The position numbers were made by a program, and so were the translations under genes. This document shows positions 347 to 15,315 of a stretch of 64,000 nt of DNA, one piece after another. Each line of letters opens with the position of its first letter. Position 1 is the stretch's first letter. Source of the DNA: Bradyrhizobium sp. Ash2021 (GTDB taxonomy: Bacteria > Pseudomonadota > Alphaproteobacteria > Rhizobiales > Xanthobacteraceae); the NCBI RefSeq assembly GCF_031202265.1, contig NZ_CP100604.1:7918501-7982500 (forward strand), read 5' to 3'. The notes under the pieces are model-generated. The model ran no database searches. It was not told where the DNA came from and saw only the letters and a list, made by a program, of their open reading frames with translations.

Positions 347-1672
347 TTAGCGTTCCGTTTCCAAATTCGCGAGGATCTGCGCTAGTTGCTGGTAACCGGT
401 GCCCAGGCTGGCGTTTTCCTCCTTGGCCTGGCGAAGGAACCCCTCCAGCGGCTCGTGCAGCCGGATCGCCTCGTCGACCTCGACGCTGGAACCTGCCCGA
501 TAGGCCCCGAGCCGGATCAGTTCCTCCATATCGGCATAGGTCGCCATCACCTGCCGCGCCTTGGTGATGACGGGCAGATAGGCCGGGTCGGCCGATTTCG
601 GCATGGTCCGGGAGACCGATTTGAGGACGTTGATTGCCGGAAACCGTCCGCGCTCGGCGATCGATCGCTGCATCATGACGTGGCCATCCAAGATGCCGCG
701 CACCGCATCCGCAATCGGCTCATTGTGGTCGTCGCCATCGACCAGCACGGTAAAGATACCGGTGATAGTGCCGGCGCTGGTGCCCGGTCCGGCCCGCTCC
801 AGAAGCTTCGGCAATTCGGTGAACACGGTCGGCGTGTAGCCCTTGGCGGTCGGCGGCTCGCCGGCCGACAACCCGATCTCGCGCTGCGCCATCGCAAACC
901 GCGTCACCGAGTCCATCAGGCACAGCACGTCCTTGCCTTCGTCGCGAAAATATTCCGCGATTGCCAGGGTCAGATAAGCCGCCTGCCGCCGCATCAAGGC
1001 CGGCTCGTCTGATGTCGCGACCACCACCACCGAGCGCGCCAGGCCTTCATCGCCGAGGTCGTCCTGCAAAAATTCCTGCACCTCGCGGCCGCGTTCGCCG
1101 ATCAGGCCAATGACCGTAATGTCCGCATCGACGTTGCGCGCCAGCATCGACAGCAGCACCGATTTGCCGACACCGGAACCGGCGAAGATGCCGAGCCGCT
1201 GACCGCGGCAGCAAGTCAGGAAGGTATTCAGCGCCCGCACGCCAAGATCGAGCGGCGCGCCGACGCGCTGGCGCGAATGCGCCGGCGGCGGCGAGTTGCG
1301 ATAGGGCATCGGCGACGGGCCCTGCGCCAATGGCCCCTTGCCGTCGATCGGTTCACCCATGGCGTTGATGACGCGGCCGAGCCAGTACGGCGACGGCCGC
1401 ACTTGACTGGCGGCATTGGCGATCACCGCGCGGCAGCCGCGCCGGACACCTTCGAGGCCCGCGAACGGCATCACGACAGCATTGTTGCCACTAAAGCCGA
1501 TCACCTCGGCGGGGATGAAGCGGTTGCCGCCGGTGTCGATCACGATGCGCGCGCCGACCGACATCGCATGGATGGGTCCGGCGATCTCGACCATCAGCCC
1601 GCGCACGCCGACCACGCGGCCATATATATTGACGCCGTCGATGTCGCCGATCTGCTCCGCGAGCGCCTTCAT
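347..1672 (-). CDS. fliI: Flagellum-specific export ATPase FliI
   Basis: This 441-residue protein is an F1-type ATPase that energises export of flagellar subunits at the cytoplasmic face of the export gate. A Walker A motif GSGVGKS is at residues 165-171, the Walker B region [11 protein letters not shown] is near residue 250, and the FliI/YscN-type stretch [18 protein letters not shown] follows. Length matches the family. It reads away from ctrA, and the shared upstream region carries a CtrA-like box at 1712-1727, 40 bp before its start. fliJ follows on the same strand. The identification is firm; CtrA control is inferred from the site only. Confidence 0.95.
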
Positions 1673-1711
1673 TGCGAAAACCTTAAGTTTCCGCTTTTTT
1701 GAACGGGGCGC

Positions 1712-1727
1712 TTAACCTCGTGTTTAC
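1712..1727. promoter_or_regulatory. Candidate CtrA-binding box between fliI and ctrA
   Basis: TTAA, a 7-base spacer (CCTCGTG) and TTTAC match the CtrA consensus TTAA-N7-TTAA with one mismatch in the second half. It lies 40 bp upstream of the fliI start and about 310 bp upstream of ctrA. Class II flagellar genes are known CtrA targets in alphaproteobacteria, so fliI is the more likely target. Binding is inferred from sequence only. Confidence 0.5.
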
Positions 1728-1793
1728 CCGCATCGTTAATCATTACGTCACTGTCTTTGGTGACTGAGAACGCTCGTCCATCAGAAGAAGGAT

Positions 1794-1962
1794 GAGTCGG
1801 GGGAGTCGGTTAGGCCCGCCTCTTAAAGTGGAACCTGAACGAGAACGGATAAGAAAAGCTGCTTCGACGCAATATCTTATGGCGATTCGACAAAAATTGC
1901 ACGGTTAGAGCTTGCGAACAGGAATCAGTTTTTGTTAACCATATCCGGTCAGGATCCGAATC
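1794..1962. promoter_or_regulatory. Cluster of five GANTC sites upstream of ctrA
   Basis: GANTC, the CcrM methylation target, occurs at 1794-1798, 1803-1807, 1884-1888, 1922-1926 and 1958-1962. One random 169-base stretch would be expected to hold fewer than one. A TTAACC half-site for CtrA is at 1935-1940. In Caulobacter, ctrA transcription depends on GANTC methylation state and GcrA. The arrangement suggests the same logic here. The whole 1673-2037 interval has no credible gene and reads as the fliI/ctrA regulatory region with a long ctrA leader. Confidence 0.6.
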
Positions 1963-2037
1963 AGTTGTTCAAAGGCGTTTTGAGTGCCGCAAGTGCGGCC
2001 GACCTGACGCCCGGAGCGGCGACTATAGGGGACTGGC

Positions 2038-2739
<702 letters not shown>

Positions 2740-2786
2740 TCTCTCAGGGTTTTCCGCGCGCCGCGAGGCTCGCTCCTCCCGACTGG

Positions 2787-2813
2787 ACCCCGCCGCAAAT
2801 GGCGGGGTTTTCG
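2787..2813 (+). terminator. Rho-independent terminator after ctrA
   Basis: ACCCCGCC (2787-2794), a 6-base loop GCAAAT and the perfect complement GGCGGGGT (2801-2808) are followed by TTTTCG. It lies 47 bp after the ctrA stop and before the convergent membrane-protein gene. Confidence 0.85.
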
Positions 2814-2853
2814 TTTGCGGAGAGGCTGTCCCAGCCCCTCACCGCTGCCGCGG

Positions 2854-4437
2854 CTACGCGCGCACCAGCGCCTGGTCTGGCATCAAAGCCTTGTCGGCCA
2901 CGTATGATGACGACGAGCTCTCCCGGATCCGGGCGATCACCAGATATCCGATGACAAATCCAAAGGCGAAGGTGCAAACGAACACGCCCAGGACCATCAC
3001 GACCGCGGAGGTACGGTCCAGCAGCTCCATGACCGGAATATCCGACACCCTGTGAATGGCCGAGATCAACAGCACCGCCACCACCATGCCGGCTCCGAAC
3101 ACCAGGCCGTCCAGCACGCGCTTCATCCGCCGGGATTTGTAGCTGCTCCACATCGAATCCTGCACCAGCAGGGCGGTCATCGTTCCGATGCTCCAGGGAA
3201 ACAGCAACACAGGCAGATCGCCCAAAACCACCTGCCAGAAGTTTCGGTCGTAAAACTGATTGTAGTCGAAATAGACCTGAAGCGGCAGAATCGGCAGCAC
3301 GACCAAAAGACCGGCCGACAGGATAAACCCGATCGGAGCTCGACCGAAGATACCCTCGTTTGCGAACGCGTATTGACGCTTGAGATGATGGACCAGCCAG
3401 AAAGTGACGATGAATTCCACCGGCGTGACCGTTAATGTGCGGGCGATGCCGAAGGCGCCCGGGATATCAATCTTACCGCGCAGGACGATCAGCCAGAGCA
3501 ACGACCACGCCACCGTCACCGCCACCGCGGTCGCCACGGTCCACATGATGCCGGGTGGCGGCGCCTTCATCGTGAATCCGATTGCTTCCAGCCGGCGTTT
3601 GCGGCCGGCAAAATCCCCCTCCCCCGCCAATGCGGCACGCGCAATGAACAGCAACAGATTGTCGAGCATAAAATCCAGGTCCTTGCGCAAATCCTCCAGC
3701 ATGCCTCCCGCCGCGTTCTGGGCCGCCAGCTGAAGTTGATTGCTCGGACTGTCTTGCGCGGCAAGCGTGTCGAGTGCGTGCCAGTCGTCGGGCTCAACTT
3801 TGCCCTCATGCATGATCGCCCCGTAGACTGCCGCGCTGCTCTTGAGCGTGCGAACCGCCTTGAACGAAACCAGGTCAAAGACGCGCAGCAGCTCGGCATA
3901 ATGTTCGGAGTTGCGCTCGATGAACGTTTCGCCGTTCGCGCACCACTGCTCCAGATGGTGCATGATGGCGGCGACCTTCAGCAGGCGAGACTGGATGGCG
4001 GTTGATTGCACGGCGACAAAATCGTCAATCTGGTAGCCGATCCGCCCGAACTTTCGCCGGATGACGTCGCAGTCTTCAGGCCTGAGTTCGAAGGGGGATC
4101 CTGCCAACTCGTCGCGGAGGTCGAACGCACAGGTCGGAATCCCGGCAATGCCCTGACAAAAGTTGCGCCACGCAAGGGGAATAACAGGTACCAGCCAAAC
4201 GAAGATCGCCAGCCACATTGCCGCCAGGGGCGACAGCTTGGCCGGAAGCAACGCGTAGATCACGACGAACGGAATGATGAAGGTGGTGACGCCGAAATAG
4301 AACAATGCACGCGTGGTGTAGGACCGGGTACCCTTCAGCGTACGGAACCTGAACCAATAAAACAGGACGACGATCAGCGGTCCGCCCAGATGCGTACCAA
4401 GATCGTTCAATCCCTCGAGAAGCGTTTCAAGCGACAC
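2854..4437 (-). CDS. Polytopic membrane protein of unknown function, partner of CHAT protein
   Basis: I do not recognise a named family for this 527-residue protein. Hydrophobic segments are visible near residues 18-30, 45-65, 70-90, 300-322, 335-352, 370-392, 402-425, 440-465 and 473-500. A large soluble, mostly helical region lies between the third and fourth segments (about 95-295). It ends with a Ser-rich tail. It starts 65 bp after the stop of the CHAT-TPR protease gene on the same strand, so the two are probably co-transcribed. It could be a target or a membrane effector of the protease; that is inference from position alone. It converges on ctrA across the ctrA terminator. Confidence 0.7.
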   Translation of the reverse strand: MSLETLLEGLNDLGTHLGGPLIVVLFYWFRFRTLKGTRSYTTRALFYFGVTTFIIPFVVIYALLPAKLSPLAAMWLAIFVWLVPVIPLAWRNFCQGIAGIPTCAFDLRDELAGSPFELRPEDCDVIRRKFGRIGYQIDDFVAVQSTAIQSRLLKVAAIMHHLEQWCANGETFIERNSEHYAELLRVFDLVSFKAVRTLKSSAAVYGAIMHEGKVEPDDWHALDTLAAQDSPSNQLQLAAQNAAGGMLEDLRKDLDFMLDNLLLFIARAALAGEGDFAGRKRRLEAIGFTMKAPPPGIMWTVATAVAVTVAWSLLWLIVLRGKIDIPGAFGIARTLTVTPVEFIVTFWLVHHLKRQYAFANEGIFGRAPIGFILSAGLLVVLPILPLQVYFDYNQFYDRNFWQVVLGDLPVLLFPWSIGTMTALLVQDSMWSSYKSRRMKRVLDGLVFGAGMVVAVLLISAIHRVSDIPVMELLDRTSAVVMVLGVFVCTFAFGFVIGYLVIARIRESSSSSYVADKALMPDQALVRA

Positions 4438-4502
4438 AGTGGCCTCCTATGCGCGGCTACGCTCGATAATGCAGGCCAGCCACGGCGGGCATCTGACCTC
4501 TC

Positions 4503-6341
4503 TTACGCTGTCTGACTAGCGTTCGCCTGGCGCTCGATTCTCGTTCTTTGCGACATGAAATCCGCGTTATCCGGCGCCAGCGCGATCGCCGCGTCCATGT
4601 CCTTCAGCGCGTTCTCGGGATTCTTGATCTGCGCATAGGCGTTCGCGCGCGAGACGAGGTATTTCGGTTCTTGCGCGTTCCGCGAGATCGCAACGCCATA
4701 CGCCTTGATCGCCTCATCCAGGAAGCCGCGCCTGTTGTCGGGACCCGAAGACATGCCGCAAATGATGCCCTTGATCCAGTAGAACTCGGGGTTGTCCGGC
4801 TGGAGCTTGATCGCCTCGGTAATATCGGCCAACGCGTTTTCGTAGAGTCCCACCATCGCGTTGAAATTGGCGCGGCGTACGCGATACTCGGCCCTGGCAG
4901 GATCCAGCTTCAGCATCATGGCGAAGCTGGCAGCGGCTTTCGGGATCAGCTTTTGACGCTGTTGCAGGGTTCCCAGATCGAGATAGATTTTTGCAAGACG
5001 CGCGGCAAGTTCCGTGTCGCCCTCAAGGCCGGCAAGCAGTGCCTGGCCGCGTTGGCACAGTTGCTCGAGTTCTTCCGAAGAGCCGGAAGCCGCGTCGGCG
5101 ACGAGCATGAATTCCGCGCGCTGCAGCAGCAGCACTTCCCTGGAAGGCTTGACCGCTGCAGCCGTCGCTTCAAGGGGCGGGTTGTGTTCGACGTCGAAAA
5201 TCTTCCCGTCGGCCGAACGCATGTACAGAACCGGAATTCCCCATTCGACCCGCGATCCGTTCTGGATGAATTGACGTGCCGTCGTAATCGCATTGTCGAC
5301 CGGGCTGTTACTCGCCAAGGCGGTATAAAATCCCTCCGACATCGAAATCGCCGCAGTATCGGTGATCGGAAACTGCATGGCGACGACTGCCGGCAACCAT
5401 CCGGTCCGCATCAGACCTATTGCCGGATTTCCGAACCGGTCGCCGACATTGATCTTGGCGCTCTCGCAGCAGTTAAGAACGATAAGACGCAGGGATTTGC
5501 GTGCACCGGTCAGCATCACCGCGAGATCGGAAGCGAACTTCTTTACCGGCTTGCCGTCCTCGTCGACCATGACGATGAAACCGGTCTCGTCGAAACTGCT
5601 CGCACCGCCGTCTTCATCCAGTTCCTCGACGCCGCCATGCCCGATGAAATGAAAAATGTGCCACTCGCCTTCCTGCAGCTTGGTCATCAGGTCTTTTCCG
5701 GTCCCGCCCGGAACCCATTGGAAGTCGACACGCCCTTCACGCTGCAGCCTGTCCGTTCCCCTGTTGATGCGTTCCCTTTCCTTGATGACGTCCAGTTTCG
5801 GCCAGCCCGCGGTCGCCGGATCGGCAATCATGCCGAGAATCCGAAGCGGGCCCTTGACGCCCATTTGCGCGGCCTGTCCCGCCGTCTCGAGATAGCGCAC
5901 GATCGGCAGCCGAAGGCTGACAAAGCTTGGCATCTCGTTTTCTTCGTAGAGATATTCCCAAGGCAGTCCGGCCAGTTCAGCGGACTCGATGCGTAGCTTG
6001 ATTCTCAGGTCCTTGCTCTTGCTCCGCGCGTAAAGATCCTGGATCGACGGCGTATTCACGAAGATGCTGCGAAAAACCTCCTGTCCAAACTCGCGCAGGA
6101 CTTTTTCCCCGCGCGAGGCGAGGCCATGGCGATTCTTGTCGTCGATTTCCAGAACGGCATTTTCCAGATCGCCGCGCAGCTTGGCGAGCGCGCCCGGCTC
6201 CGAGAACCAGAACTTCACCTTGCATCGCGGCGTTTCCCCGGCCGGCGACCGCAGCACCTTGCCATAGTATTGTTGCGGCCCACTGCCGGCCGGATCGGAA
6301 CTGATCTCTAGCTCGAAATCTTGATATTCAATGACGCTCAT
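4503..6341 (-). CDS. CHAT-domain (caspase-like) protease with C-terminal TPR repeats
   Basis: This 612-residue protein has an N-terminal region of about 120 residues, then a complete CHAT domain. Landmarks are LPWEYLY (126-132), PIVRYL (146-151), HIFHFIGHGG with catalytic His235, and LIVLNCCESA with catalytic Cys292. Later CHAT motifs PAVVAMQFPITDTAA and WGIPVLYMRS are also present. Residues from about 415 to 600 contain TPR-like helices (for example LGTLQQRQKLIPKAAASFAM and YENALADITEAIKLQPDNPE). CHAT enzymes are clan CD cysteine proteases related to caspases and separase, and several act in phage defence or programmed death. No signal peptide is visible, so it is probably cytoplasmic. Small gene 6422-6664 precedes it and a membrane-protein gene follows. 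Function is inferred. Confidence 0.88.
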   Translation of the reverse strand: MSVIEYQDFELEISSDPAGSGPQQYYGKVLRSPAGETPRCKVKFWFSEPGALAKLRGDLENAVLEIDDKNRHGLASRGEKVLREFGQEVFRSIFVNTPSIQDLYARSKSKDLRIKLRIESAELAGLPWEYLYEENEMPSFVSLRLPIVRYLETAGQAAQMGVKGPLRILGMIADPATAGWPKLDVIKERERINRGTDRLQREGRVDFQWVPGGTGKDLMTKLQEGEWHIFHFIGHGGVEELDEDGGASSFDETGFIVMVDEDGKPVKKFASDLAVMLTGARKSLRLIVLNCCESAKINVGDRFGNPAIGLMRTGWLPAVVAMQFPITDTAAISMSEGFYTALASNSPVDNAITTARQFIQNGSRVEWGIPVLYMRSADGKIFDVEHNPPLEATAAAVKPSREVLLLQRAEFMLVADAASGSSEELEQLCQRGQALLAGLEGDTELAARLAKIYLDLGTLQQRQKLIPKAAASFAMMLKLDPARAEYRVRRANFNAMVGLYENALADITEAIKLQPDNPEFYWIKGIICGMSSGPDNRRGFLDEAIKAYGVAISRNAQEPKYLVSRANAYAQIKNPENALKDMDAAIALAPDNADFMSQRTRIERQANASQTA

Positions 6342-6421
6342 TGCAGCCTCACTCGGCCAAAATCTCTTACTTCAGCGGCAACTCCGTTGCGCCCGCGCCG
6401 CAAACGCGCGGGAGCCAAAAT

Positions 6422-6664
6422 TCAGTCACAGCATAAAAATCGGTCTTCGACTTCGACCTGCCCGCACAACCGGTGCATCGGGTTGAATATCGCCCCGCCG
6501 AACCAGGCCCAGTCGTTGCGCGCGATAGGGTCATTCAGCGGAAGGGCGTAGCTGCCCACCTTGCCCGGGCGGACGGTCGTGCCGATCCCGGCAGCTTCCG
6601 TAGCAACCTGCTCGCGCGGCGACCCAGCTGCCGGCGAGTCCTGCTTGTCGAGAGCCCAAACCAT
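6422..6664 (-). CDS. Small protein upstream of CHAT gene, unknown function
   Basis: This 80-residue product begins MVWALDKQDSPAAGSP and ends with two adjacent cysteines (FLCCD). I chose the ATG at 6664 because GGGAG lies 6 bases upstream; an open frame extends further to 6715 without a better ribosome site. The middle contains aromatic residues (DWAWFGGAIFNPMHRLCG). I see no signal peptide, membrane segment or known motif. It ends 80 bp before the CHAT gene on the same strand, which makes co-transcription plausible. It may be a sensor or target of the protease, but that is speculation. It could also be unrelated. Confidence 0.55.
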   Translation of the reverse strand: MVWALDKQDSPAAGSPREQVATEAAGIGTTVRPGKVGSYALPLNDPIARNDWAWFGGAIFNPMHRLCGQVEVEDRFLCCD

Positions 6665-6779
6665 CGCTTGCTCCCACAACGTCGTTAGCCTAGCAAAACC
6701 AGTTTCTCGATGCAACTTTAAGGAACATTAACTAGCACAAAAGCCCATGGTAGTTCGGCCGTCATCGCGTCCAACGCCG

Positions 6780-8405
6780 TCATGCCACCGGCGCCGCGGC
6801 GAGTGCGGCGATGACGTCGGCGCCGTTCGGCACGCCCAATCCCGTACACGCATTCCAGCCCGGCCCCGCGTCATAGCCTTTGCCGCCGACGCGGTTGTTG
6901 CCCTGGTCGATCTGGCGAAACGAGGACGGGTTGGCATAGAGCGTGGAATTGACGAAGCCGAGCGGCGCGCCGCGCCTGGCGTTGGCGATCGCGATCAAGC
7001 CTGCCCATAAGGGGGCGACCGCGCTGGTGCCGTCCTTGATCACCTCGGCGCCATTGAGGACGATGCGATAACCGGGCGTGCCGGCGGCGGCACCGGCGAC
7101 ATCGGGGACGCCCCGCCGCCTGGCGCCGTCGTTGACCGAGGGCGGCAGCGCCAGACCGGATTGGTAGGCCGGCACCGGAAAGGCATCGCTGATTCCGCCG
7201 CCGGTCCCGCTCGATCCGTCGTTCCAGACCGCTTCCGCGCCGATGCCGGTCCCGCCGGCACCCAGCGTCGGCGACGTTCCGCCGCAGCTCAGCGCATAGG
7301 GGCTGGAAGCGGGGAACCAGACGTGAGCCCTGCCGTCGGTCAATCCGCCCGTCGCCAGTTCATCGCCGGCGGCGAACAGCACGGTGACTTGCAGCCGTTT
7401 CGCATCGGCCAGCACCGCCTGCATGGCGTCGCGCGCCGAATCCGACCAGAATTTCTCGGCGCTGCCCCAGCTGACCGAAAGCACCTGCGGCCGATTGACG
7501 TCATCGAAGATCGCCGCATTGATCGCGCCAACCAGGCTCTGGGTGGTATTGCCGGCGAAATAGACCACGATCCTGGCCTTCGGCAGCAGACCGGCCAGGA
7601 TCTGGAGATCGAGCGCGATCTCCTGGTCGGATACCGTGCCGCCGCCGAAATTGTTGCCGTTCGCCGCCGGTACCGACCCCTCTTCCGCGGCCGGGGTGTC
7701 GACGACGACGGATTTGTCGATGATGCGAGGGGCCGTCCGCCCCATCCCATCCAGCGCCTTGGCGAGATCGGAGCCAAGATAGCCGCCGCCAAGCGCGATG
7801 ATGCCGACGCAGACCGACGACACGTCGTGGTCCAGCGGGATGCCGTAAAGGGCTGCGACTTCGGTCGGCCACAATCCGGGTCCGCCTCCCGCGCCGGCCA
7901 GCGGCCGCACGACATTCACCGGCCTCACCGCAAACGGCCGCGTGTCGAAGCCGAGAATGGCACGGGTCCACGGCGCGATCTCTTTTGGGATCATCAACTG
8001 GCCGACGCGCGCGCGAAAGCGATTTTGACCGTCATCATAGATCCGCAGCGTCGCGCCCAGCACCTCGGCCAAGGTGCGCGCGGTTGCTTCCAGCACCACG
8101 ATCCGCTGGGCCAGATCGAAGCTGCGCACGGTGACGTGGTTTGCCTTCGCGAGCTTCCTGATCCGCGCCGCCGCCCGGGCGTGGGTGCGGCGGCGCTGCG
8201 CGGAAAGCGCGCGGCGCGTGATCGGCTTCGAAAGCCGAGCAAGGTCGCCGGCGCTGCCCGGCTGAAATTGGTCGGGCGAGCGCCGCTTCAGGTGCACAGT
8301 AATGACGATCCGCTGATCCGGGTCGACGTCGCCGACGTAAGTCGCGCCTTCCGGTTCGGCGCGATAACCGCCGGCGAGCGCTACCTTTTGCCCGGTCCTG
8401 CCCAC
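6780..8405 (-). CDS. Sedolisin-family serine-carboxyl peptidase (S53, pro-kumamolisin type)
   Basis: This 541-residue protein has an N-terminal activation domain (about 20-165, with the typical VTVHLKRR start) and a subtilisin-fold catalytic domain. The S53 catalytic set is present: Glu262 and Asp266 in SDQEIALDLQ, oxyanion Asp348 in FAAGDE, and Ser461 in DGTSAVAPLWAG. A C-terminal calcium-site-like GPGWNACTGLGVP is also visible. Such enzymes cleave proteins at acid pH. No signal peptide is apparent at the predicted GTG start, unusual for a normally secreted family. The start lies 13 bp after the stop of the upstream secreted heme-type protein, so both are probably one operon. Confidence 0.9.
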   Translation of the reverse strand: MGRTGQKVALAGGYRAEPEGATYVGDVDPDQRIVITVHLKRRSPDQFQPGSAGDLARLSKPITRRALSAQRRRTHARAAARIRKLAKANHVTVRSFDLAQRIVVLEATARTLAEVLGATLRIYDDGQNRFRARVGQLMIPKEIAPWTRAILGFDTRPFAVRPVNVVRPLAGAGGGPGLWPTEVAALYGIPLDHDVSSVCVGIIALGGGYLGSDLAKALDGMGRTAPRIIDKSVVVDTPAAEEGSVPAANGNNFGGGTVSDQEIALDLQILAGLLPKARIVVYFAGNTTQSLVGAINAAIFDDVNRPQVLSVSWGSAEKFWSDSARDAMQAVLADAKRLQVTVLFAAGDELATGGLTDGRAHVWFPASSPYALSCGGTSPTLGAGGTGIGAEAVWNDGSSGTGGGISDAFPVPAYQSGLALPPSVNDGARRRGVPDVAGAAAGTPGYRIVLNGAEVIKDGTSAVAPLWAGLIAIANARRGAPLGFVNSTLYANPSSFRQIDQGNNRVGGKGYDAGPGWNACTGLGVPNGADVIAALAAAPVA

Positions 8406-8418
8406 GTTTCAGCCCGTT

Positions 8419-9606
8419 TTATTTTCCGGCGCAATTGCTGGCGGGTATCGGATTCTGCGTATCGTCGATCGCGCATAATGGAATCGACCAGACGAAATCG
8501 GCCGAGGTGGTGAGTTGGCTGAGGCCGGGCTTGCCTTCGAAAATCGGCGGCTGGCTGTTGAAGGTCCAGTACCATGCGGGCAGCAACGGGCCGATCGGAC
8601 CGATCGGACCGTTGGCGGTGAACGAGAGGAATCCGGCGACCGATGTCGGTTTGCCGGTTTTGTCGAACACGGCCCGGCCGTGGCAGGTCATGCATGATGC
8701 GGTGGCCACGAAGGTGTCCTCGGTCACGGAATTGCCCACGCGAATATCGAGACCGACATTATCGACAAAGTCGGTCTGCGAGCCCTTGAGGCAATAATTC
8801 GAATAGACGGGATCGATGTCCGCGTTGGCCAGCATGGCGGTCAGTGCCTGCGTCTTGGTGCAATCGGGATAACCCTGGCCAGCGACGGGGTTCGAGGCCA
8901 CGAACGCCGTCTGCGCCCCGAACGCATCCTTGCAGCCGAGGATATCGCACCTGGCCGGGTTGAGCTTGTGCTCGAAGGTCGCCCAGGTCCAGTTCGGCAC
9001 CAGCTTGCTGATGACGTGCATCGCCACCATCGCATACTGGACGCCGCCGGAGCTGTTGACGTGGTAGAGTTGCGGCACCTGCGCGAGCGTGACCCGGTTA
9101 TTGGTGAAGGCTGGAATATCGCTGACCGCCATCCAGTTCGCCTTGACCTCCGTGGAGTCGATCGGGAACTGCAAATTCTTGCCGAACGCGGCCTTGAGGC
9201 CGGAGACCTTGTAGAGGTTGTTTTGCACGATGAAGTCGAACGTCGCCTTGTTGTGGCGGGTTTCTTCGGTGGCGCCCTGCGCGATGCCGGGCGGCAACGC
9301 GGGAAGCAGTCCGCCGCTTTGCTGCACGCCCTCGCGCGCGAGCGCCGGCAGGATCGGCCGCCGCAATGCCGGCGGCGTCGCGCCGGTCGGGAATTGCGGG
9401 GTGGGCTTGAACGTGTCGCTGTCGCTCGCCCAGGTCTCGAATGTCGAGTTGCTGCCGCCGGCCCGGGTATTGGCCTGGATGAAGAGCTGCCAGGCCACCT
9501 GATCCGGCGCCGTCATCGCCGGATTCGGCGTCGACTGCGCCGCAGCCGGGAGATGGGGGAGAAGAAATAAACCACAAACGAGTGCGGTATTGATCGATCG
9601 TCTCAT
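8419..9606 (-). CDS. Secreted protein with one CXXCH heme-binding motif, cytochrome-like
   Basis: I chose the ATG at 9606 because GGAGGAG lies just upstream and the product (395 residues) then starts with a clear Sec signal peptide (MRRSINTALVCGLFLLP, cleavage near AAAQS). The mature protein contains a single CMTCH motif near residue 310 in a TASCMTCHGRAVFD context, the usual covalent heme c site, and several further cysteines. I do not recognise a specific family for the rest. The gene precedes the S53 peptidase gene by 13 bp. A periplasmic redox role is likely; the substrate is unknown. Confidence 0.75.
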   Translation of the reverse strand: MRRSINTALVCGLFLLPHLPAAAQSTPNPAMTAPDQVAWQLFIQANTRAGGSNSTFETWASDSDTFKPTPQFPTGATPPALRRPILPALAREGVQQSGGLLPALPPGIAQGATEETRHNKATFDFIVQNNLYKVSGLKAAFGKNLQFPIDSTEVKANWMAVSDIPAFTNNRVTLAQVPQLYHVNSSGGVQYAMVAMHVISKLVPNWTWATFEHKLNPARCDILGCKDAFGAQTAFVASNPVAGQGYPDCTKTQALTAMLANADIDPVYSNYCLKGSQTDFVDNVGLDIRVGNSVTEDTFVATASCMTCHGRAVFDKTGKPTSVAGFLSFTANGPIGPIGPLLPAWYWTFNSQPPIFEGKPGLSQLTTSADFVWSIPLCAIDDTQNPIPASNCAGK

Positions 9607-9853
9607 CGTCGCTCTCCTCCAAAATGTCAGGGCTGGAATCCGTCGGTCATCCAATTCGAATAACACTGCAGGTTGCATGCGTTATAGACGACCATTCCGG
9701 GATTCTCTGTGAAGCCGATCACAGACACGGGCCGTTCGTTGCGGCGGCGTGAGGATCGAAAGGCCATCGATCTTTCGAAATTGAACCAGCGCTTCGCGTC
9801 CATCGACCAATGCGCTATGCTGCTGCGAAGCGGGACGAGTCGGGGCGCCCTCA

Positions 9854-10258
9854 ATGATCCTACAATCGCTCGCCGGGCTGCCGGCGTTCCTGGTCTATTT
9901 CTGCACGGCGCTTGTCGCCGTCGTCGCCTATCTCTTCGTCTACACCCGCGTCACGCCGCACGATGAATTCAAGCTGATCCGGGAGAATGACCCGGCGGCG
10001 GCGATCGCCCTGGGGCTCAGCCTGCTCGGCTTCGTGCTGCCGGTGGTCAGCGCCATCGCCCACGCCGCCAATGTCTGGGATTGCCTGATCTGGAGCACGA
10101 TCGCGCTGATGGTCCAGATCATCGTCTATTACATCGTCAAGATACCGGTGCCGAACCTGTCGGCGCGGATCGCTGCGGGCGAACTTGCGGCCGCGATCTG
10201 GCTCGGACTTTCCTCGCTGGCCGCGGGCGCGCTCAACGCCGCCTGCATGATCTACTGA
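9854..10258 (+). CDS. DUF350 (YjfL-like) inner-membrane protein
   Basis: This 134-residue protein has four predicted membrane helices (about 8-28, 46-68, 75-95 and 105-130). It contains the DUF350-type pattern ALGLSLLGFVLPVVSAIAHA. It opens a same-strand run with two small proteins and a glutathionylspermidine-synthase-like ATP-grasp enzyme, which parallels the E. coli yjfL-yjfM-yjfC set. The role of DUF350 proteins is not settled; a membrane partner of the ATP-grasp enzyme is inferred from this repeated gene association. Confidence 0.85.
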   Translation: MILQSLAGLPAFLVYFCTALVAVVAYLFVYTRVTPHDEFKLIRENDPAAAIALGLSLLGFVLPVVSAIAHAANVWDCLIWSTIALMVQIIVYYIVKIPVPNLSARIAAGELAAAIWLGLSSLAAGALNAACMIY

Positions 10259-10260
10259 CC

Positions 10261-10671
10261 ATGGATAAGTCTCCGAACAAGGAATTCGGGAAACGCCGGC
10301 CGGTTGTGGCGCGGCCGGGCCCGCAGCCACCGTTGAAGCGTTCCGGACACGTCGGGCTGCTCATGATGGGCACGCTCGCGATCGGCGGCGGCGCCTACGC
10401 GCTGATGCCAAACGAGAATTGCCGGCCATCTTCTCCGGGAATGGCGGGTCCGGCGATCCCGCAAATGAACGCCGAATGTCCCCCGCGGGGATCCTCATCC
10501 GGTGGCTCGGGTGGCGGAGGCTACTCCTCCCGCAGCAGTTTCTTCTCGGGCGATTCCACCTCGAGCCATGCGTCATCGGGCGGCTCCGATTCCGGCTCGG
10601 GCGGGGTGACGCGCGGCGGCTTCGGCTCGTTTGCGCACAGCTTTGCCGCGCATTTTTCCGGCGGCGGTTGA
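10261..10671 (+). CDS. Small Ser/Gly-rich membrane-anchored protein in yjfLMC-like cluster
   Basis: This 136-residue product starts at the ATG two bases after the DUF350 stop. It has a basic N-terminus, one hydrophobic segment (HVGLLMMGTLAIGGGAYALM, about residues 29-48), an Asn-Cys pair just after it, and a low-complexity C-terminal half of Ser, Gly and Phe. The N-terminal part resembles the next small protein (KRS..V.L..MG..AIG, then a Pro and a Cys), so the two look like paralogues. It holds the position of yjfM (DUF1190), but I cannot confirm that family by eye. Probably exported or membrane-anchored. Confidence 0.75.
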   Translation: MDKSPNKEFGKRRPVVARPGPQPPLKRSGHVGLLMMGTLAIGGGAYALMPNENCRPSSPGMAGPAIPQMNAECPPRGSSSGGSGGGGYSSRSSFFSGDSTSSHASSGGSDSGSGGVTRGGFGSFAHSFAAHFSGGG

Positions 10672-10788
10672 TCACACCAGCTTTTTCCCGCACGTTGCCG
10701 TGAAACGGAGCGCTTTTGCTTGCCCCGACGCCACGAGGTGATGGAAACTCGCACCCGCTCCGGACCCTCAGAAAGCAGGATCGCAACC

Positions 10789-11013
10789 ATGAAACGCTCG
10801 CGTCGTGTGGTGCTGACATTGATGGGAAGTGCGGCGATCGGGGCCGTATCGATGGGCCTGGTGCCGCGAAGGGACTGTGGTCCCGGCAATACGGCCGTGC
10901 CCGGTCCGGGCGGCAAGCCTTACTGCCGCGCGGCCTATGGCGGCTTCGGCGGTGTTCGCTTCCACGGCCACGCCCATGGTCACGGCGGTGGTCACGGCCA
11001 TGGCGGCGGCTGA
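10789..11013 (+). CDS. Small His/Gly-rich exported protein, paralogue of upstream gene
   Basis: I chose the ATG at 10789, preceded by GCAGGA at a suitable distance; an earlier in-frame ATG at 10741 exists. The 74-residue product has a basic start and a hydrophobic segment (VVLTLMGSAAIGAVSMGLVP), then a Cys and a Gly-rich region. It ends in a run of alternating His and Gly, which suggests metal binding. The N-terminal third resembles the 10261-10671 product. It lies between that gene and the ATP-grasp gene, on the same strand. Function is unknown. Confidence 0.7.
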   Translation: MKRSRRVVLTLMGSAAIGAVSMGLVPRRDCGPGNTAVPGPGGKPYCRAAYGGFGGVRFHGHAHGHGGGHGHGGG

Positions 11014-11072
11014 CGCATGATCCAAAAAAGCGGGAATCGGCTTTTCGACAAGACCGTGCGCCAATAACGCCA

Positions 11073-12230
11073 ATGCAGCGCATCATCTGTCCCGAACGCG
11101 ACGACTGGCGTGCGACCGCCGAAAGCGCCGGGTTCGATTTTCACACCATCGACGGCGAGCGCTATTGGGACGAGCGGGCCTACTACGCCTTCACGCTCGA
11201 TGAGATCGAACGCCAGATCGAGCAGCCGACCGGCGAGATCGACGCGATGTGCCTCGAACTCGTCGGCCATGCCGTCGACGATGAGGATTATCTCGGCCGG
11301 TTGAAGATACCGGAAGCCTTCTGGCCGCTGATTTCGGAGAGCTGGCACCGCGACGATGGCAGCCTCTATGGCCGGCTCGATCTAAGTTTCGACGCCCGCA
11401 ACCCGGCAAAATTGCTGGAATACAACGCGGACACTCCGACCTCGATTTTCGAAGCGGCGGTGTTCCAGTGGACCTGGCTCGAACAGGCGATCGAACGAAA
11501 CATCATCCCCAGGCGCGCCGATCAATTCAATTCGATCCATGAACGCCTGATCGAGGCCTGGAACAAACTCGGCGGCGCGCATCACCTTCATCTCGCCGGC
11601 ATGACCGACAATACCGAGGATGCCGGCACGCTGGCTTATCTGGAGGATACCGCAAGCCAGGCCGGACTTGGGACCACGCTGATCGACATCGAGGACATCG
11701 GATTGCGCGACGACGGCAGCTTCGTCGATCTCGACGATCGCGAAATCGAGCTCGCGTTCAAGCTCTATCCCTGGGAATGGATGTTTCGCGACGCGTTCGG
11801 CGCAAAACTTGCGAAGGCGCCGACGCGCTGGATCGAGCCGCCATGGAAGGCGATCCTTTCCAACAAGGGCATTCTTCCGCTGCTATGGGAGATGTTTCCG
11901 AACCACCCCAATTTGCTGCCGGCCTATTTCGAGGACGATCCGAACGCAGCGAAGCTCGGCACGTCGTTCGTGCGCAAGCCGCTATACTCGCGCGAGGGCG
12001 CCAACATCGCGCTGGTCAGCGCCGGCACCACGCTCGTCGAGCAGGAAGGACCGTATGGCGCCGAGGGTTTCGTCCGGCAGGCGCTGGCGCAGCTACCGAA
12101 TTTTTCCGGTCAGTATCCGGTGCTTGGAAGCTGGCTGGTCGACCATGCGCCGTGCGGCCTGTCGATCCGCGAGGACGAGAATCCGATCACCGGCAATACG
12201 TCGCGGTTCCTGCCGCACGCGATCCTGTAG
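11073..12230 (+). CDS. Glutathionylspermidine synthase-like ATP-grasp enzyme (YjfC type)
   Basis: This 385-residue protein starts at ATG 11073 (MQRIICPERDDWRATAE). It matches the glutathionylspermidine synthase / pre-ATP-grasp family: DGSLYGRLDLSFDA, KLLEYNADTPTSIFEA, IELAFKLYPWEWMF, the ATP-grasp stretch ILSNKGILPLLWEMFPNHPNLLPAYF, then SFVRKPLYSREGANI. The family ligates amines to peptide carboxylates using ATP. No N-terminal amidase (CHAP) domain is present, unlike bifunctional E. coli Gss. The exact substrates are not known for YjfC-like members. It is the last gene of the DUF350 cluster, followed by a hairpin before convergent cheR. Confidence 0.88.
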   Translation: MQRIICPERDDWRATAESAGFDFHTIDGERYWDERAYYAFTLDEIERQIEQPTGEIDAMCLELVGHAVDDEDYLGRLKIPEAFWPLISESWHRDDGSLYGRLDLSFDARNPAKLLEYNADTPTSIFEAAVFQWTWLEQAIERNIIPRRADQFNSIHERLIEAWNKLGGAHHLHLAGMTDNTEDAGTLAYLEDTASQAGLGTTLIDIEDIGLRDDGSFVDLDDREIELAFKLYPWEWMFRDAFGAKLAKAPTRWIEPPWKAILSNKGILPLLWEMFPNHPNLLPAYFEDDPNAAKLGTSFVRKPLYSREGANIALVSAGTTLVEQEGPYGAEGFVRQALAQLPNFSGQYPVLGSWLVDHAPCGLSIREDENPITGNTSRFLPHAIL

Positions 12231-12248
12231 AGCATCATCAAGCGAAGA

Positions 12249-12268
12249 CGACGGCCTCTCAGCCGTCG
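12249..12268. terminator. Hairpin between convergent ATP-grasp and cheR genes
   Basis: A perfect 7-bp stem CGACGGC / GCCGTCG encloses a 6-base loop. It lies between the stop of the ATP-grasp gene (12230) and the stop of cheR (12272). No T-tract follows, so it is a weak or factor-dependent candidate at best. Confidence 0.4.
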
Positions 12269-12271
12269 CGC

Positions 12272-13150
12272 TCAACGCGCCGAAGCCACCACTCTCAACG
12301 CGGGCGGCGCCATGATCGTGACGCCGGCGCGCGCCGCCGGCGCGGCGTTCGGACGATAAAGCCCGCGCCGCTCCGGATACGGCTTGAAGGTGTTGGTGAT
12401 GCCGACCACGGATTCGGCGGCACCCAGCGCCAGCACGCCGTCGGGTTCGAGCATGCGCGAGAGGCGATCGAAGATATTGGCCTTGGTGTCCTGGTCGAAA
12501 TAGATCAGGACGTTGCGGCAGAAGATCACGTCGAAGGTGCCGAGGTGGGAGAAATCCTGCAGCAAATTGAGCTGGCGGTGCTGCACCATGGCGCGGATCT
12601 CGGCGTTGAGCTGCCAAAGCTCCCCGGTTTGGGTGAAATACTTGACCAGCATCTGGATCGGCAAACCGCGCTGCACTTCAAACTGGCTGAAGATGCCGGC
12701 TTTGGATTTTTCCAGCACGGCCTGCGACAGGTCGGTCGCGACAATCTCGGTCCGCCAGCCCGCAAGCGCCGAACCAAACTCCTTCAGGCACATCGCGATC
12801 GAATACGGCTCCTGCCCGGTGGAGGAAGCCGCGCACCAGATCCGCAGGCTGCGGCGGGCAGCCCGCGCCTGAACCAGCGCCGGAATCACCGTCTCCTTCA
12901 TATGATCGAACGGAATTTTGTCGCGAAAGAAAAACGTCTCATTGGTGGTCATCGCCTCGACCACTTCGGCGGTCAAGGCGTCGGCCCCGCTCTTCATCTT
13001 CTGGACGAGTTCGGGAATACCGGGAAGGCCCGACTTGCGCGCCAGCGGCACCAGGCGGCTTTCGACCAGATATTGCTTGTCGGCAGACAGATCGAGGCCA
13101 GAACGCTCTTTCAGAAGCCTGCGCAGATACTCATAGTCGGAAGGCGTCAC
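12272..13150 (-). CDS. cheR: Chemotaxis protein methyltransferase CheR
   Basis: This 292-residue protein transfers methyl groups from S-adenosylmethionine to glutamates of chemoreceptors. The N-terminal CheR helix domain begins [19 protein letters not shown]. The SAM-binding motif lies in [19 protein letters not shown], and [14 protein letters not shown] follows. Length is typical. Its start overlaps the cheB stop by 4 bp (ATGA-type overlap), showing translational coupling. It is the last gene of the cheA-W-Y-B-R run. No C-terminal pentapeptide-binding extension is seen. Confidence 0.95.
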
Positions 13151-14316
13151 GAACGATCTCCCGAAAACACCCGAACCAGTTTCGGCCCGATCTGATTGAG
13201 CGGCAGGATGGCAGCACAGATGCCTGCATTGGCGGCCGCACCGGGCATGCCCCAGACCACGCTCGTCGCCTCGTCCTGGGCCATCACGCTGCCGCCGGCG
13301 GCGACGATGTCCTTGCCGCCGCGCATGCCGTCGGAGCCCATACCGGTCAGGATCACCGACATGATGCCGCCCTGCCAGACATCGATCGCGGAGCTGAACA
13401 ACGGATCGACGGCGGGCTTGCAGAAATTCACCGGCGGTCCGTCGTCGAGCGCGATCGCGGCATCCGCGCCATGGCGCACGACGCGCATATGGCGGCCACC
13501 GGGCGCCAGATAGATCTGGCCGGCCTTGACGATCTCGCCGTCAATGGCCTCGTGCGCCGGACGGCGACTGGTGCGCGCCAGATGCTCGGCAAGAATCGTG
13601 GTGAAGGTCGGCGGCATGTGCTGGGTGATCAGCACCGGAAAACGATCGATCACCGGTCCGATCTCGGCGACCAGCGACATCAGGGCCTGCGGTCCCCCAG
13701 TCGACGAACCGATCAGGAGCACGCGCGGCGCCAGCATGCTGAACGGACGGCGCATCAGCTGCGGCTGCGCCGCCGGCGCCGGTGTATGACGGGCCGATGG
13801 GTCGCGCGACCGATCGAGCACGGGCGCCAGAGGCGGGCTCGCCGGCGTGGACGCGCCGCGGCGCGCCTTGGCGCCGAGGTGACGGATCTTCTGGATCAGA
13901 TGGTGGCGAAAGGTCTCGGCGGCGGCGGCTTCGCGGGTGCTTTCGGGCTTTGGGATATAATCGGATGCGCCCAGCGACAGCGCCTTGAAGCTGATCTCCG
14001 CGTTACGGCGAGTCAGGGTCGACGCCATGATGACGATGAGGTTGCGCTTCTTCGCCAGCAGTTGCGGCAGCGCGGAAATGCCGTCGAGTTCCGGCATTTC
14101 GATATCGAGCACGGCGACGTCGGGGTTGATGCGCTCGAGCTGGTTGACCGCATCCAGGCCGGTGCGCAGCGAGGCCGCGACCACCATATCCGGTTCGGCG
14201 CCGATCCAGCGCGCGATCATGCCGCGGATCACGACGGAGTCGTCGACCACCATCACCCGCAGCGGCTCTTGCCGTGTCGAAGTCGGAGCCGGGGAACTTG
14301 TCAACGCAACGCTCAT
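13147..14316 (-). CDS. cheB: Chemotaxis response regulator / protein-glutamate methylesterase CheB
   Basis: This 389-residue protein removes methyl groups from (and deamidates) chemoreceptors when phosphorylated. The receiver domain (about 19-135) has acidic residues in VMVVDDSVV and phosphoacceptor D71 in [13 protein letters not shown] linker of about 50 residues rich in Ala, Pro and Arg leads to the esterase domain. Catalytic Ser205 lies in [10 protein letters not shown], His233 in ITQHMPPTF, and the catalytic Asp in [12 protein letters not shown]. It follows cheY and overlaps cheR by 4 bp. Confidence 0.96.
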
Positions 14317-14395
14317 TACTTCACCAACGGCTCAAACGGCACGGTTACAACACTAACGCCGAAGGCCGCTCTGCCGCCGGACCGGATACGCGAGA

Positions 14396-14761
14396 TCAGA
14401 TGAGGCCGACTTCCTGGAACTTCGCGGTCACGATGTCCTTATCGAACGGCTTCATGATGTATTCGTTGGCGCCGGCATGCAGCGCACGCGCGATATGCGC
14501 GACATCGTTTTCGGTGGTGCAGAACACCACCTTGGGCGCGTCGCCACCGGGCATGCGGCGCAGATTGCCGAGGAACTCATAGCCGTCCATCACGGGCATG
14601 TTCCAGTCGAGCAGAACCGCCTCGGGCATGGCGCGCTTGCAGACTTCAAGCGCTTTCTCGCCGTCCTCGGCTTCGACGATCTGGAAATCCAGACCTTCCA
14701 GGATACGACGTGCGACCTTTCGAATGACGCTGGAGTCATCGACGACCAGACATGTTCTCAT
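14396..14761 (-). CDS. cheY: Chemotaxis response regulator CheY
   Basis: This 121-residue single receiver domain has acidic residues 8-9 (LVVDDSSVIRKVARRIL), phosphoacceptor D52 in AVLLDWNMPVMDG and the conserved Lys in NEYIMKPFDKDI. Phospho-CheY binds the flagellar motor switch. It sits between cheW (71 bp upstream) and cheB (79 bp downstream). Its position in the cluster supports the CheY assignment over other stand-alone receivers. Confidence 0.92.
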   Translation of the reverse strand: MRTCLVVDDSSVIRKVARRILEGLDFQIVEAEDGEKALEVCKRAMPEAVLLDWNMPVMDGYEFLGNLRRMPGGDAPKVVFCTTENDVAHIARALHAGANEYIMKPFDKDIVTAKFQEVGLI

Positions 14762-14832
14762 TTTCGGCCTCTACTTCCCAATCCCGCGAAGGGACGTTTC
14801 CATTTTCAGTTTTTAGTACGCTTGCGTTGCTG

Positions 14833-15306
14833 TTACGCCGCCACCAGGGCGGGCACGATTTCGAGGACGCGATCGACATCGAGGACGACCATGAGCTGTC
14901 CGTCCAGTCTGTGGACACCGCCGGCGAGTTTGGCCATGCGGGGATCGAGGTTGACGGGGTTTTCCTCGCGGCTGTCGTCGGGCAGCCTGAGAACCTCGCC
15001 GATCTGGTCGATCAGGAGCCCGTAGGATTCGCCGCGCAAATCGACGCCGACCGCCATCGGCGGCTTGCCGTCGTCGTTTTTGGGCAGGCCCAGCCGCGCG
15101 CGCATGTCGACCACGGTGACGATGCGGCCGCGCAGATTGAGCACGCCGGCGATCTCGGCCGACGACAGCGGCACCCGCGTCAGCCGCTCCGGCATGAACA
15201 CGTCCTGCACCCGCGAGATCGGCAGGCCGAACAGCTGCCCGCCGATCACGGCGGTGACGTATTCGGCAACCGTGCCCTCGATGGTATCGGTCTTGCTTGT
15301 CATCAT
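14833..15306 (-). CDS. cheW: Chemotaxis coupling protein CheW
   Basis: This 157-residue protein is a CheW/SH3-like adaptor linking chemoreceptors to CheA. Typical landmarks are AVIGGQLFGLPISRVQDVF, LRGRIVTVVDMRARLGLP and SYGLLIDQIGEVLRL. Its start lies 9 bp after the cheA stop. Length is usual. Confidence 0.94.
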   Translation of the reverse strand: MMTSKTDTIEGTVAEYVTAVIGGQLFGLPISRVQDVFMPERLTRVPLSSAEIAGVLNLRGRIVTVVDMRARLGLPKNDDGKPPMAVGVDLRGESYGLLIDQIGEVLRLPDDSREENPVNLDPRMAKLAGGVHRLDGQLMVVLDVDRVLEIVPALVAA

Positions 15307-15315
15307 CTCATTCCC

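What the first reader, a model, noticed from the sequence alone, without database searches (positions are those of the whole stretch)
2854..6664. Three-gene CHAT protease module, possibly a defence or cell-death system
A CHAT-TPR protease with intact His235/Cys292 sits between a small protein gene (80 residues) and a nine-helix membrane protein with a soluble insert. CHAT proteases in other systems cleave dedicated partners after a trigger. A membrane protein encoded next to such a protease could be a substrate or pore. I do not recognise this exact gene set. The CHAT identification is firm; the system idea is inference from gene order.
Basis: partly seen in the sequence, partly recalled or inferred. 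Interest (0 to 1): 0.78.

Follow-up and report, generated by a model that had tools for sequence, protein, structure and literature searches.

The report
Bacterial caspase-like protease with membrane partner
In some soil bacteria of the genus Bradyrhizobium, a caspase-like protease gene travels with a gene for an uncharacterised membrane protein; the two may form a membrane-anchored protease switch, but what triggers it and what it cuts is unknown.

Summary
A CHAT-TPR protease (4503-6341, minus) and a membrane protein with about nine helices (2854-4437, minus; "MEM") are real and coupled. Of 265 Bradyrhizobium genomes, 30 carry MEM and the same 30 carry the full CHAT orthologue. The 80-residue ORF is not part: outside the window it was found in one near-identical strain. 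In all 30 carriers the pair lies beside ctrA, DUF350 or both. His235 and Cys292 are invariant in 101 of 101 aligned sequences. MEM has no Pfam family above cut-off and no significant PDB match. Profile comparison gives two remote relatives: the membrane protein of a second CHAT operon in other Bradyrhizobium, and a membrane-TerB fusion in another pseudomonadotan genus. Best reading: a membrane-tethered, signal-gated CHAT protease, with MEM as receptor or scaffold. A gasdermin-like reading (CHAT cuts MEM to open a pore) remains possible. Defence has little support: fixed site, mostly clade-wise inheritance, no convincing defence gene among 36 neighbours scanned, and MEM unmatched in the phage, plasmid and viral collections. 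No substrate or trigger is shown. New variant of a known kind.

The parts
4503..6341 (-). CHAT-TPR cysteine protease, 612 aa; CHAT fold at about 5-380, TPR at about 400-610; His235, Cys291 and Cys292 invariant
2854..4437 (-). MEM, membrane protein of about nine helices, 527 aa; helical insert at about 90-297 and C-terminal tail both predicted cytosolic; no Pfam family above cut-off
4438..4502 (-). 65-bp gap between CHAT and MEM, no terminator-like site, consistent with one transcript
2817..2853 (.). Left boundary of the accessory insert: similarity of the window to the empty ctrA-DUF350 site of three non-carriers ends at 2816
2038..2739 (+). ctrA, left flank of the site (context, not part of the module)
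9854..10258 (+). DUF350 gene, right flank of the site; directly beside CHAT in 28 of 30 carriers (not in the window and G209, where the S53 pair lies between) (context)
6422..6664 (-).
6780..9678 (-). Separate cargo: Pro-kumamolisin/subtilase-type protease (6780-8405) plus a 419-aa protein (8419-9678); found at the site without CHAT-MEM in 5 of 40 non-carriers

Best explanation
A two-gene module in which a multi-helix membrane protein (MEM) is the receptor or scaffold and a soluble CHAT-TPR cysteine protease is its output. Shown: the two genes are coupled in this genus, the protease keeps its His-Cys pair, the insert and the first helices of MEM are its most constrained parts, and remote relatives of MEM are found beside another CHAT gene and fused to a TerB-like domain. 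Inferred: insert and C-terminal tail face the cytosol; the TPR superhelix docks on one of them, possibly on the tail, which often ends in L-x-x-A; a change at the membrane alters MEM, which frees or activates the tethered protease; the protease then cuts MEM itself or another protein. Substrate and trigger are unknown.
Against: No interaction, activation or cleavage is tested. Coupling is partly explained by both genes sitting in one insert at one site. The tail is the least constrained part in close pairs (dN/dS 0.38), and the L-x-x-A end could equally be a degradation signal. The edge of the insert over TM1-3 in constraint is slight, and in the window pair they are equal (0.15). GAS478 differs at residue 249 of the otherwise invariant insert motif. 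The MEM-TerB relative has no CHAT beside it in L210, so the family does not need CHAT. The helix count is tentative, the hhalign probability for the second operon is only about 89%, and the CHAT active-site loop (294-303) has pLDDT under 50.
Confidence: 0.42

Rival explanations
1. Gasdermin-like executioner: on a trigger CHAT cuts MEM (tail or insert) and the trimmed MEM opens a channel or damages the membrane, stopping growth or killing the cell.
For: Protease encoded next to a membrane protein. Bacterial gasdermins are cut about 20 aa from the C-terminus by an adjacent caspase-like protease (passages of PMC9612521), and MEM has a low-confidence tail (most of 511-527 under pLDDT 50) after its last helix, poorly conserved between close pairs, as a cleavable linker might be.
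Against: MEM is a multi-helix integral protein with no Pfam family above cut-off and no significant PDB match; a conserved folded insert is not what a simple autoinhibitory linker looks like; MEM relatives occur with other output domains.
Confidence: 0.25
2. Housekeeping regulatory proteolysis, HetF-like: CHAT limits the level or activity of MEM or of an envelope or division factor, with no death or defence role.
For: Weak NCBIfam match to HetF at 74-379 (E 7.4e-8, 31 bits, far under its cut-off of 1200); stable site in a region with fliI-like, ctrA and chemotaxis-type genes; mostly clade-wise inheritance; HetF is reported to cleave PatU3 (passages of PMC12288457).
Against: Present in only 30 of 265 genomes, so not a general function of the genus; ctrA is convergent with MEM and the link to ctrA is only the shared site, which other cargo also uses.
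Confidence: 0.2
3. Anti-phage or abortive-infection module.
For: Accessory; best PADLOC match of CHAT is SAVED_CHAT (E 3.4e-13); the extra CHAT-TPR copy of G211 lies among TIR, AAA and TIR-nSTAND1-WD40 genes.
Against: One fixed site, few changes of state, 32 of 36 neighbours without a PADLOC hit and 4 with weak ones, other cargo at the site not defence-like by eye, MEM unmatched in plasmids, phages and viral contigs.
Confidence: 0.13

Closest known systems
Csx29 (TPR-CHAT) of type III-E CRISPR (Craspase)
   Different: TPRs are C-terminal here; in Csx29 the matched CHAT part is the C-terminal part of the chain (about 397-716); no Cas7-11 seen among the neighbours scanned; a membrane protein beside it instead
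SAVED-CHAT of type III CRISPR (8tl0; PADLOC SAVED_CHAT)
   Same: Best sequence match of the CHAT part in PDB (E 2.9e-10), top Foldseek row, best PADLOC match
   Different: No SAVED domain listed by Pfam; no CRISPR gene among the neighbours scanned
Two-gene membrane-associated caspase system ('System 4') of Kaur et al. 2020, PMC7159879 (that section read)
   Same: Two genes, one membrane protein and one caspase-superfamily protease; the authors propose membrane sensing followed by protease activation
   Different: Their membrane protein (EACC1) has one helix and its gene is 5'; MEM has about nine and its gene is 3'; the protease here carries TPRs
Bacterial gasdermin-protease pairs
   Same: Caspase-like protease beside a membrane-acting protein (passages of PMC9612521)
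   Different: MEM is a multi-helix integral protein, not shown to be a gasdermin or a pore
HetF
   Same: CHAT-type protein, weak sequence match
   Different: No MEM-like partner of HetF is known to me (recalled); different organisms and setting

Membership tests
CHAT protease family | CHAT domain by profile | tested here: met
   Pfam PF12770 56.6 bits against a cut-off of 24
CHAT protease family | Catalytic His and Cys | tested here: met
   H235 and C292 in 101 of 101 aligned sequences of 580-760 aa; the fused copy P0086, left out by that length limit, lacks the Cys by eye
CHAT protease family | Proteolytic activity | not testable with these tools
   needs purified protein
Csx29/Craspase | CHAT fold like Csx29 | tested here: met
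Csx29/Craspase | Encoded with Cas7-11 | tested here: inconclusive
   None seen among the neighbours scanned with PADLOC or Pfam; the rest of the genome was not searched for it
SAVED-CHAT | SAVED domain in the chain | tested here: not met
   Pfam lists CHAT, TPR-type and two sub-threshold families only
Kaur System 4 | EACC1 single-helix membrane component encoded by the 5' gene | tested here: not met
   MEM has about nine predicted helices and is the 3' gene
Bacterial gasdermin system | Partner is a gasdermin | tested here: inconclusive
   No significant Pfam or PDB match for MEM; absence of a fold match is not proof
Anti-phage defence | Defence-gene neighbourhood | tested here: not met
   Of 36 proteins called within about 20 kb on the left and to 24.7 kb of the window on the right, 32 had no PADLOC hit at 1e-3 and 4 (CtrA, the proteins at 12272, 14396 and 15316) had 16-22 bits; genes called by a simple script
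Anti-phage defence | Protection against phage | not testable with these tools
   needs plating assays

The most novel reading that the evidence does not exclude
MEM founds a new family of membrane receptors with a cytosolic helical insert that hand a membrane signal to interchangeable outputs: CHAT proteases in two operon types, TerB by fusion. The CHAT-TPR/MEM pair would then be a membrane-gated counterpart of Craspase, a protease switched by a membrane event instead of by RNA.
Probability: 0.3. Interest if true: 0.75.

Novelty: new variant of a known kind. Interest (0 to 1): 0.52.

Why it matters
CHAT proteases are regulated switches in CRISPR immunity and, as separase, in cell division (the latter recalled), yet for many bacterial ones no partner is known (recalled). 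A conserved two-gene pair with a defined membrane partner makes the question of what turns a CHAT protease on, and what it cuts, directly testable. It also points to an unassigned membrane protein family that recurs with CHAT and TerB.

Tried and rejected

Limits: in the genome searches only the best few candidates per genome were scored (4-5), so weak relatives may be missed. The metagenome collection had 0 scans; equal contig lengths only hint that metagenome contigs hold the pair too. Literature: 'Bradyrhizobium' with 'CHAT domain' gave 0 papers; searches on CHAT with membrane, conflict, gasdermin or two-gene terms listed no paper on this pair by title and start of abstract, but searches showed only 25 of 39,607 and 15 of 58. 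Searches were on SAVED-CHAT, HetF, gasdermins and TerB.

Full report
What is there. The window is Bradyrhizobium: the closest named record found is B. erythrophlei GAS478, 99% identical in CHAT. On the minus strand a CHAT-TPR protein of 612 aa (4503-6341) is followed after 65 bp by a 527-aa membrane protein, MEM (2854-4437). No terminator-like site lies in the gap. The 80-aa ORF (6422-6664) exists as a reading frame but outside the window was found only in GAS478 (by coordinates L060 and G209 are the same place) and in none of 40 non-carrier loci. I drop it.

Coupling. In a search of 265 Bradyrhizobium genomes, 30 have MEM at E 1e-10 or better and 44 have a CHAT match at E 1e-30 or better. Of these 44, 30 hold the full-length orthologue (best E 1.5e-258 or lower), and they are the same 30 genomes by handle. 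The other 14 hold a shorter CHAT in open frames of 414-476 aa. G211 has, besides, a fused copy of the long type. Only the 4-5 best candidates per genome were scored, so weaker relatives may be missed. In a sample of 120 relatives from 49 genera, MEM was found in 9 genomes of 1 genus. One carrier, G034, has MEM split between two reading frames while its CHAT is open; this may be an assembly error.

Site. For 29 carriers ctrA lies in the fetched stretch beside MEM; in G220 the 8419-type gene lies next to MEM and DUF350 stands beside CHAT. DUF350 is directly beside CHAT in 28 of 30; in the window and G209 the S53 pair lies between. I examined the same interval in 40 non-carriers, chosen for mostly long contigs out of the DUF350 hits. 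It is 160-219 bp in 25, about 310 bp in 2, holds the S53 plus 8419 pair in 5, and other cargo in 8. That cargo, named by eye, includes a cytochrome/cupredoxin-like protein, small membrane proteins, a phospholipase D-like protein and a transposase-like gene. Similarity of the window to the empty site of three non-carriers ends at 2816. So the site is a permissive spot between conserved genes and not an evident defence island. PADLOC on 36 neighbouring proteins gave 32 without a hit and 4 with weak hits of 16-22 bits (CtrA and the proteins at 12272, 14396 and 15316). On a ctrA tree of 29 carriers and 40 non-carriers, carriage needs 5 changes (2 forced by well supported branches; shuffled mean 22.4): accessory, but mostly inherited by clade. 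G220 was left out because ctrA was not in its stretch.

Membrane protein. MEM has no Pfam family above cut-off (Per1 at E 0.027, 14.6 bits against 25.3) and no significant PDB match by sequence (best E 3.4) or fold. The model's helices suggest three, an insert, then six, but the first helix is weakly hydrophobic (1.22) and one insert helix reaches 1.40, so the count is tentative. Charges fit a cytosolic insert and tail: 5, 3, 5 and 4 Arg/Lys on that side against 0, 1, 2, 1 and 2 on the other. Among 61 aligned relatives, E248 to D253 in the insert are invariant, though GAS478 has Glu at 249. In 123 overlapping close pairs other than the window pair, dN/dS is 0.16 for the insert, 0.18 for TM1-3, 0.23-0.24 for the other membrane parts and 0.38 for the tail. 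The tail's end is nevertheless often L-x-x-A: 61 of 112 sequences of 495-600 aa, Leu at -4 in 80 and Ala at -1 in 79. These sequences are related, so this is suggestive only.

Relatives of MEM. Of the 14 genomes with the shorter CHAT I fetched 8. In all 8 it is followed by a membrane protein of about 530-555 aa and a protein of 1,111-1,121 aa; Pfam on one example shows DUF7379, DUF7363 and a further CHAT. Two downstream genes look like a response regulator and a sensor kinase, by eye. The membrane protein aligns to MEM at hhalign E 1.8e-6, probability 90%, over 29-381 (run another way, gave E 2.8e-6 over 108 columns). The reversed and five column-shuffled controls gave 0.19-0.75; rotated copies, which keep real blocks, gave 7.8e-6 to 6.3e-5. 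A profile search of 347 genomes of the order and 398 of the phylum found one relative outside the genus, E 1.6e-8 over 10-130. It is a 708-aa protein that aligns to MEM over 12-506 (E 3.5e-14 with A4, which includes the second-operon proteins; 5.3e-12 with A1; controls 0.2-0.8) and continues into a weak TerB match just under the Pfam cut-off. It or a relative occurs in 5 of 41 genomes of that genus, itself counted; only the first was scanned for TerB. No CHAT lies beside it in L210.

Mechanism. I rank a membrane-tethered, signal-gated protease first: MEM has a conserved helical insert, its family is found with different output domains, and CHAT has a TPR arm suited to docking. A pore opened by cleavage is second. 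HetF-like regulatory proteolysis is third. Defence comes last on present evidence. None of these is tested by experiment.

Known or new. CHAT proteases and membrane-caspase pairs are known kinds. The closest published concept that I read is the membrane-associated two-gene system of Kaur et al. 2020 (that section), whose membrane component differs. I found no paper on this pair within the searches named under Tried and rejected, whose lists were partly capped. Hence: new variant of a known kind.

Noticed in passing
6780-9678: S53-type protease plus 419-aa protein form a separate cargo pair at the ctrA-DUF350 site; in L067 they lie on the other side of MEM.
   Followed up: partly
2740-9853: The ctrA-DUF350 interval is a variable cargo site across Bradyrhizobium: empty, or holding several unrelated gene sets.
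   Followed up: partly
L195 (G211) 381-17078: A second CHAT-TPR copy with an N-terminal extension lies among TIR, AAA, TIR-nSTAND1-WD40 and CAP12-type TIR genes; it lacks the catalytic Cys by eye.
   Followed up: partly
L196 2340-10855 and seven similar loci (L197-L203): A second CHAT operon: short CHAT, MEM-like membrane protein, DUF7379/DUF7363/CHAT protein (Pfam run on L196 only), then regulator-like and kinase-like genes by eye.
   Followed up: partly
L210 10080-12206: MEM-like membrane protein followed in the same chain by a weak TerB match, in another pseudomonadotan genus.
   Followed up: partly
P0237: MEM homologue of 762 aa fused to a bacterial sugar transferase domain (PF02397), listed with one contig; could be an assembly error.
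   Followed up: no
2854-4437, residues 321-360 of MEM: Between the window and GAS478 the substitutions in MEM cluster here, with raised dN and dS; recombination or local change.
   Followed up: partly
G034, MEM gene (L080 8076-9597): MEM is split between two reading frames in this draft genome; the CHAT frame is open.
   Followed up: partly
MT836801.1 965-2062: A record labelled Bacteriophage sp. from human faeces encodes a CHAT relative at 32% identity over 62% of the query; the record has no annotation.
   Followed up: no
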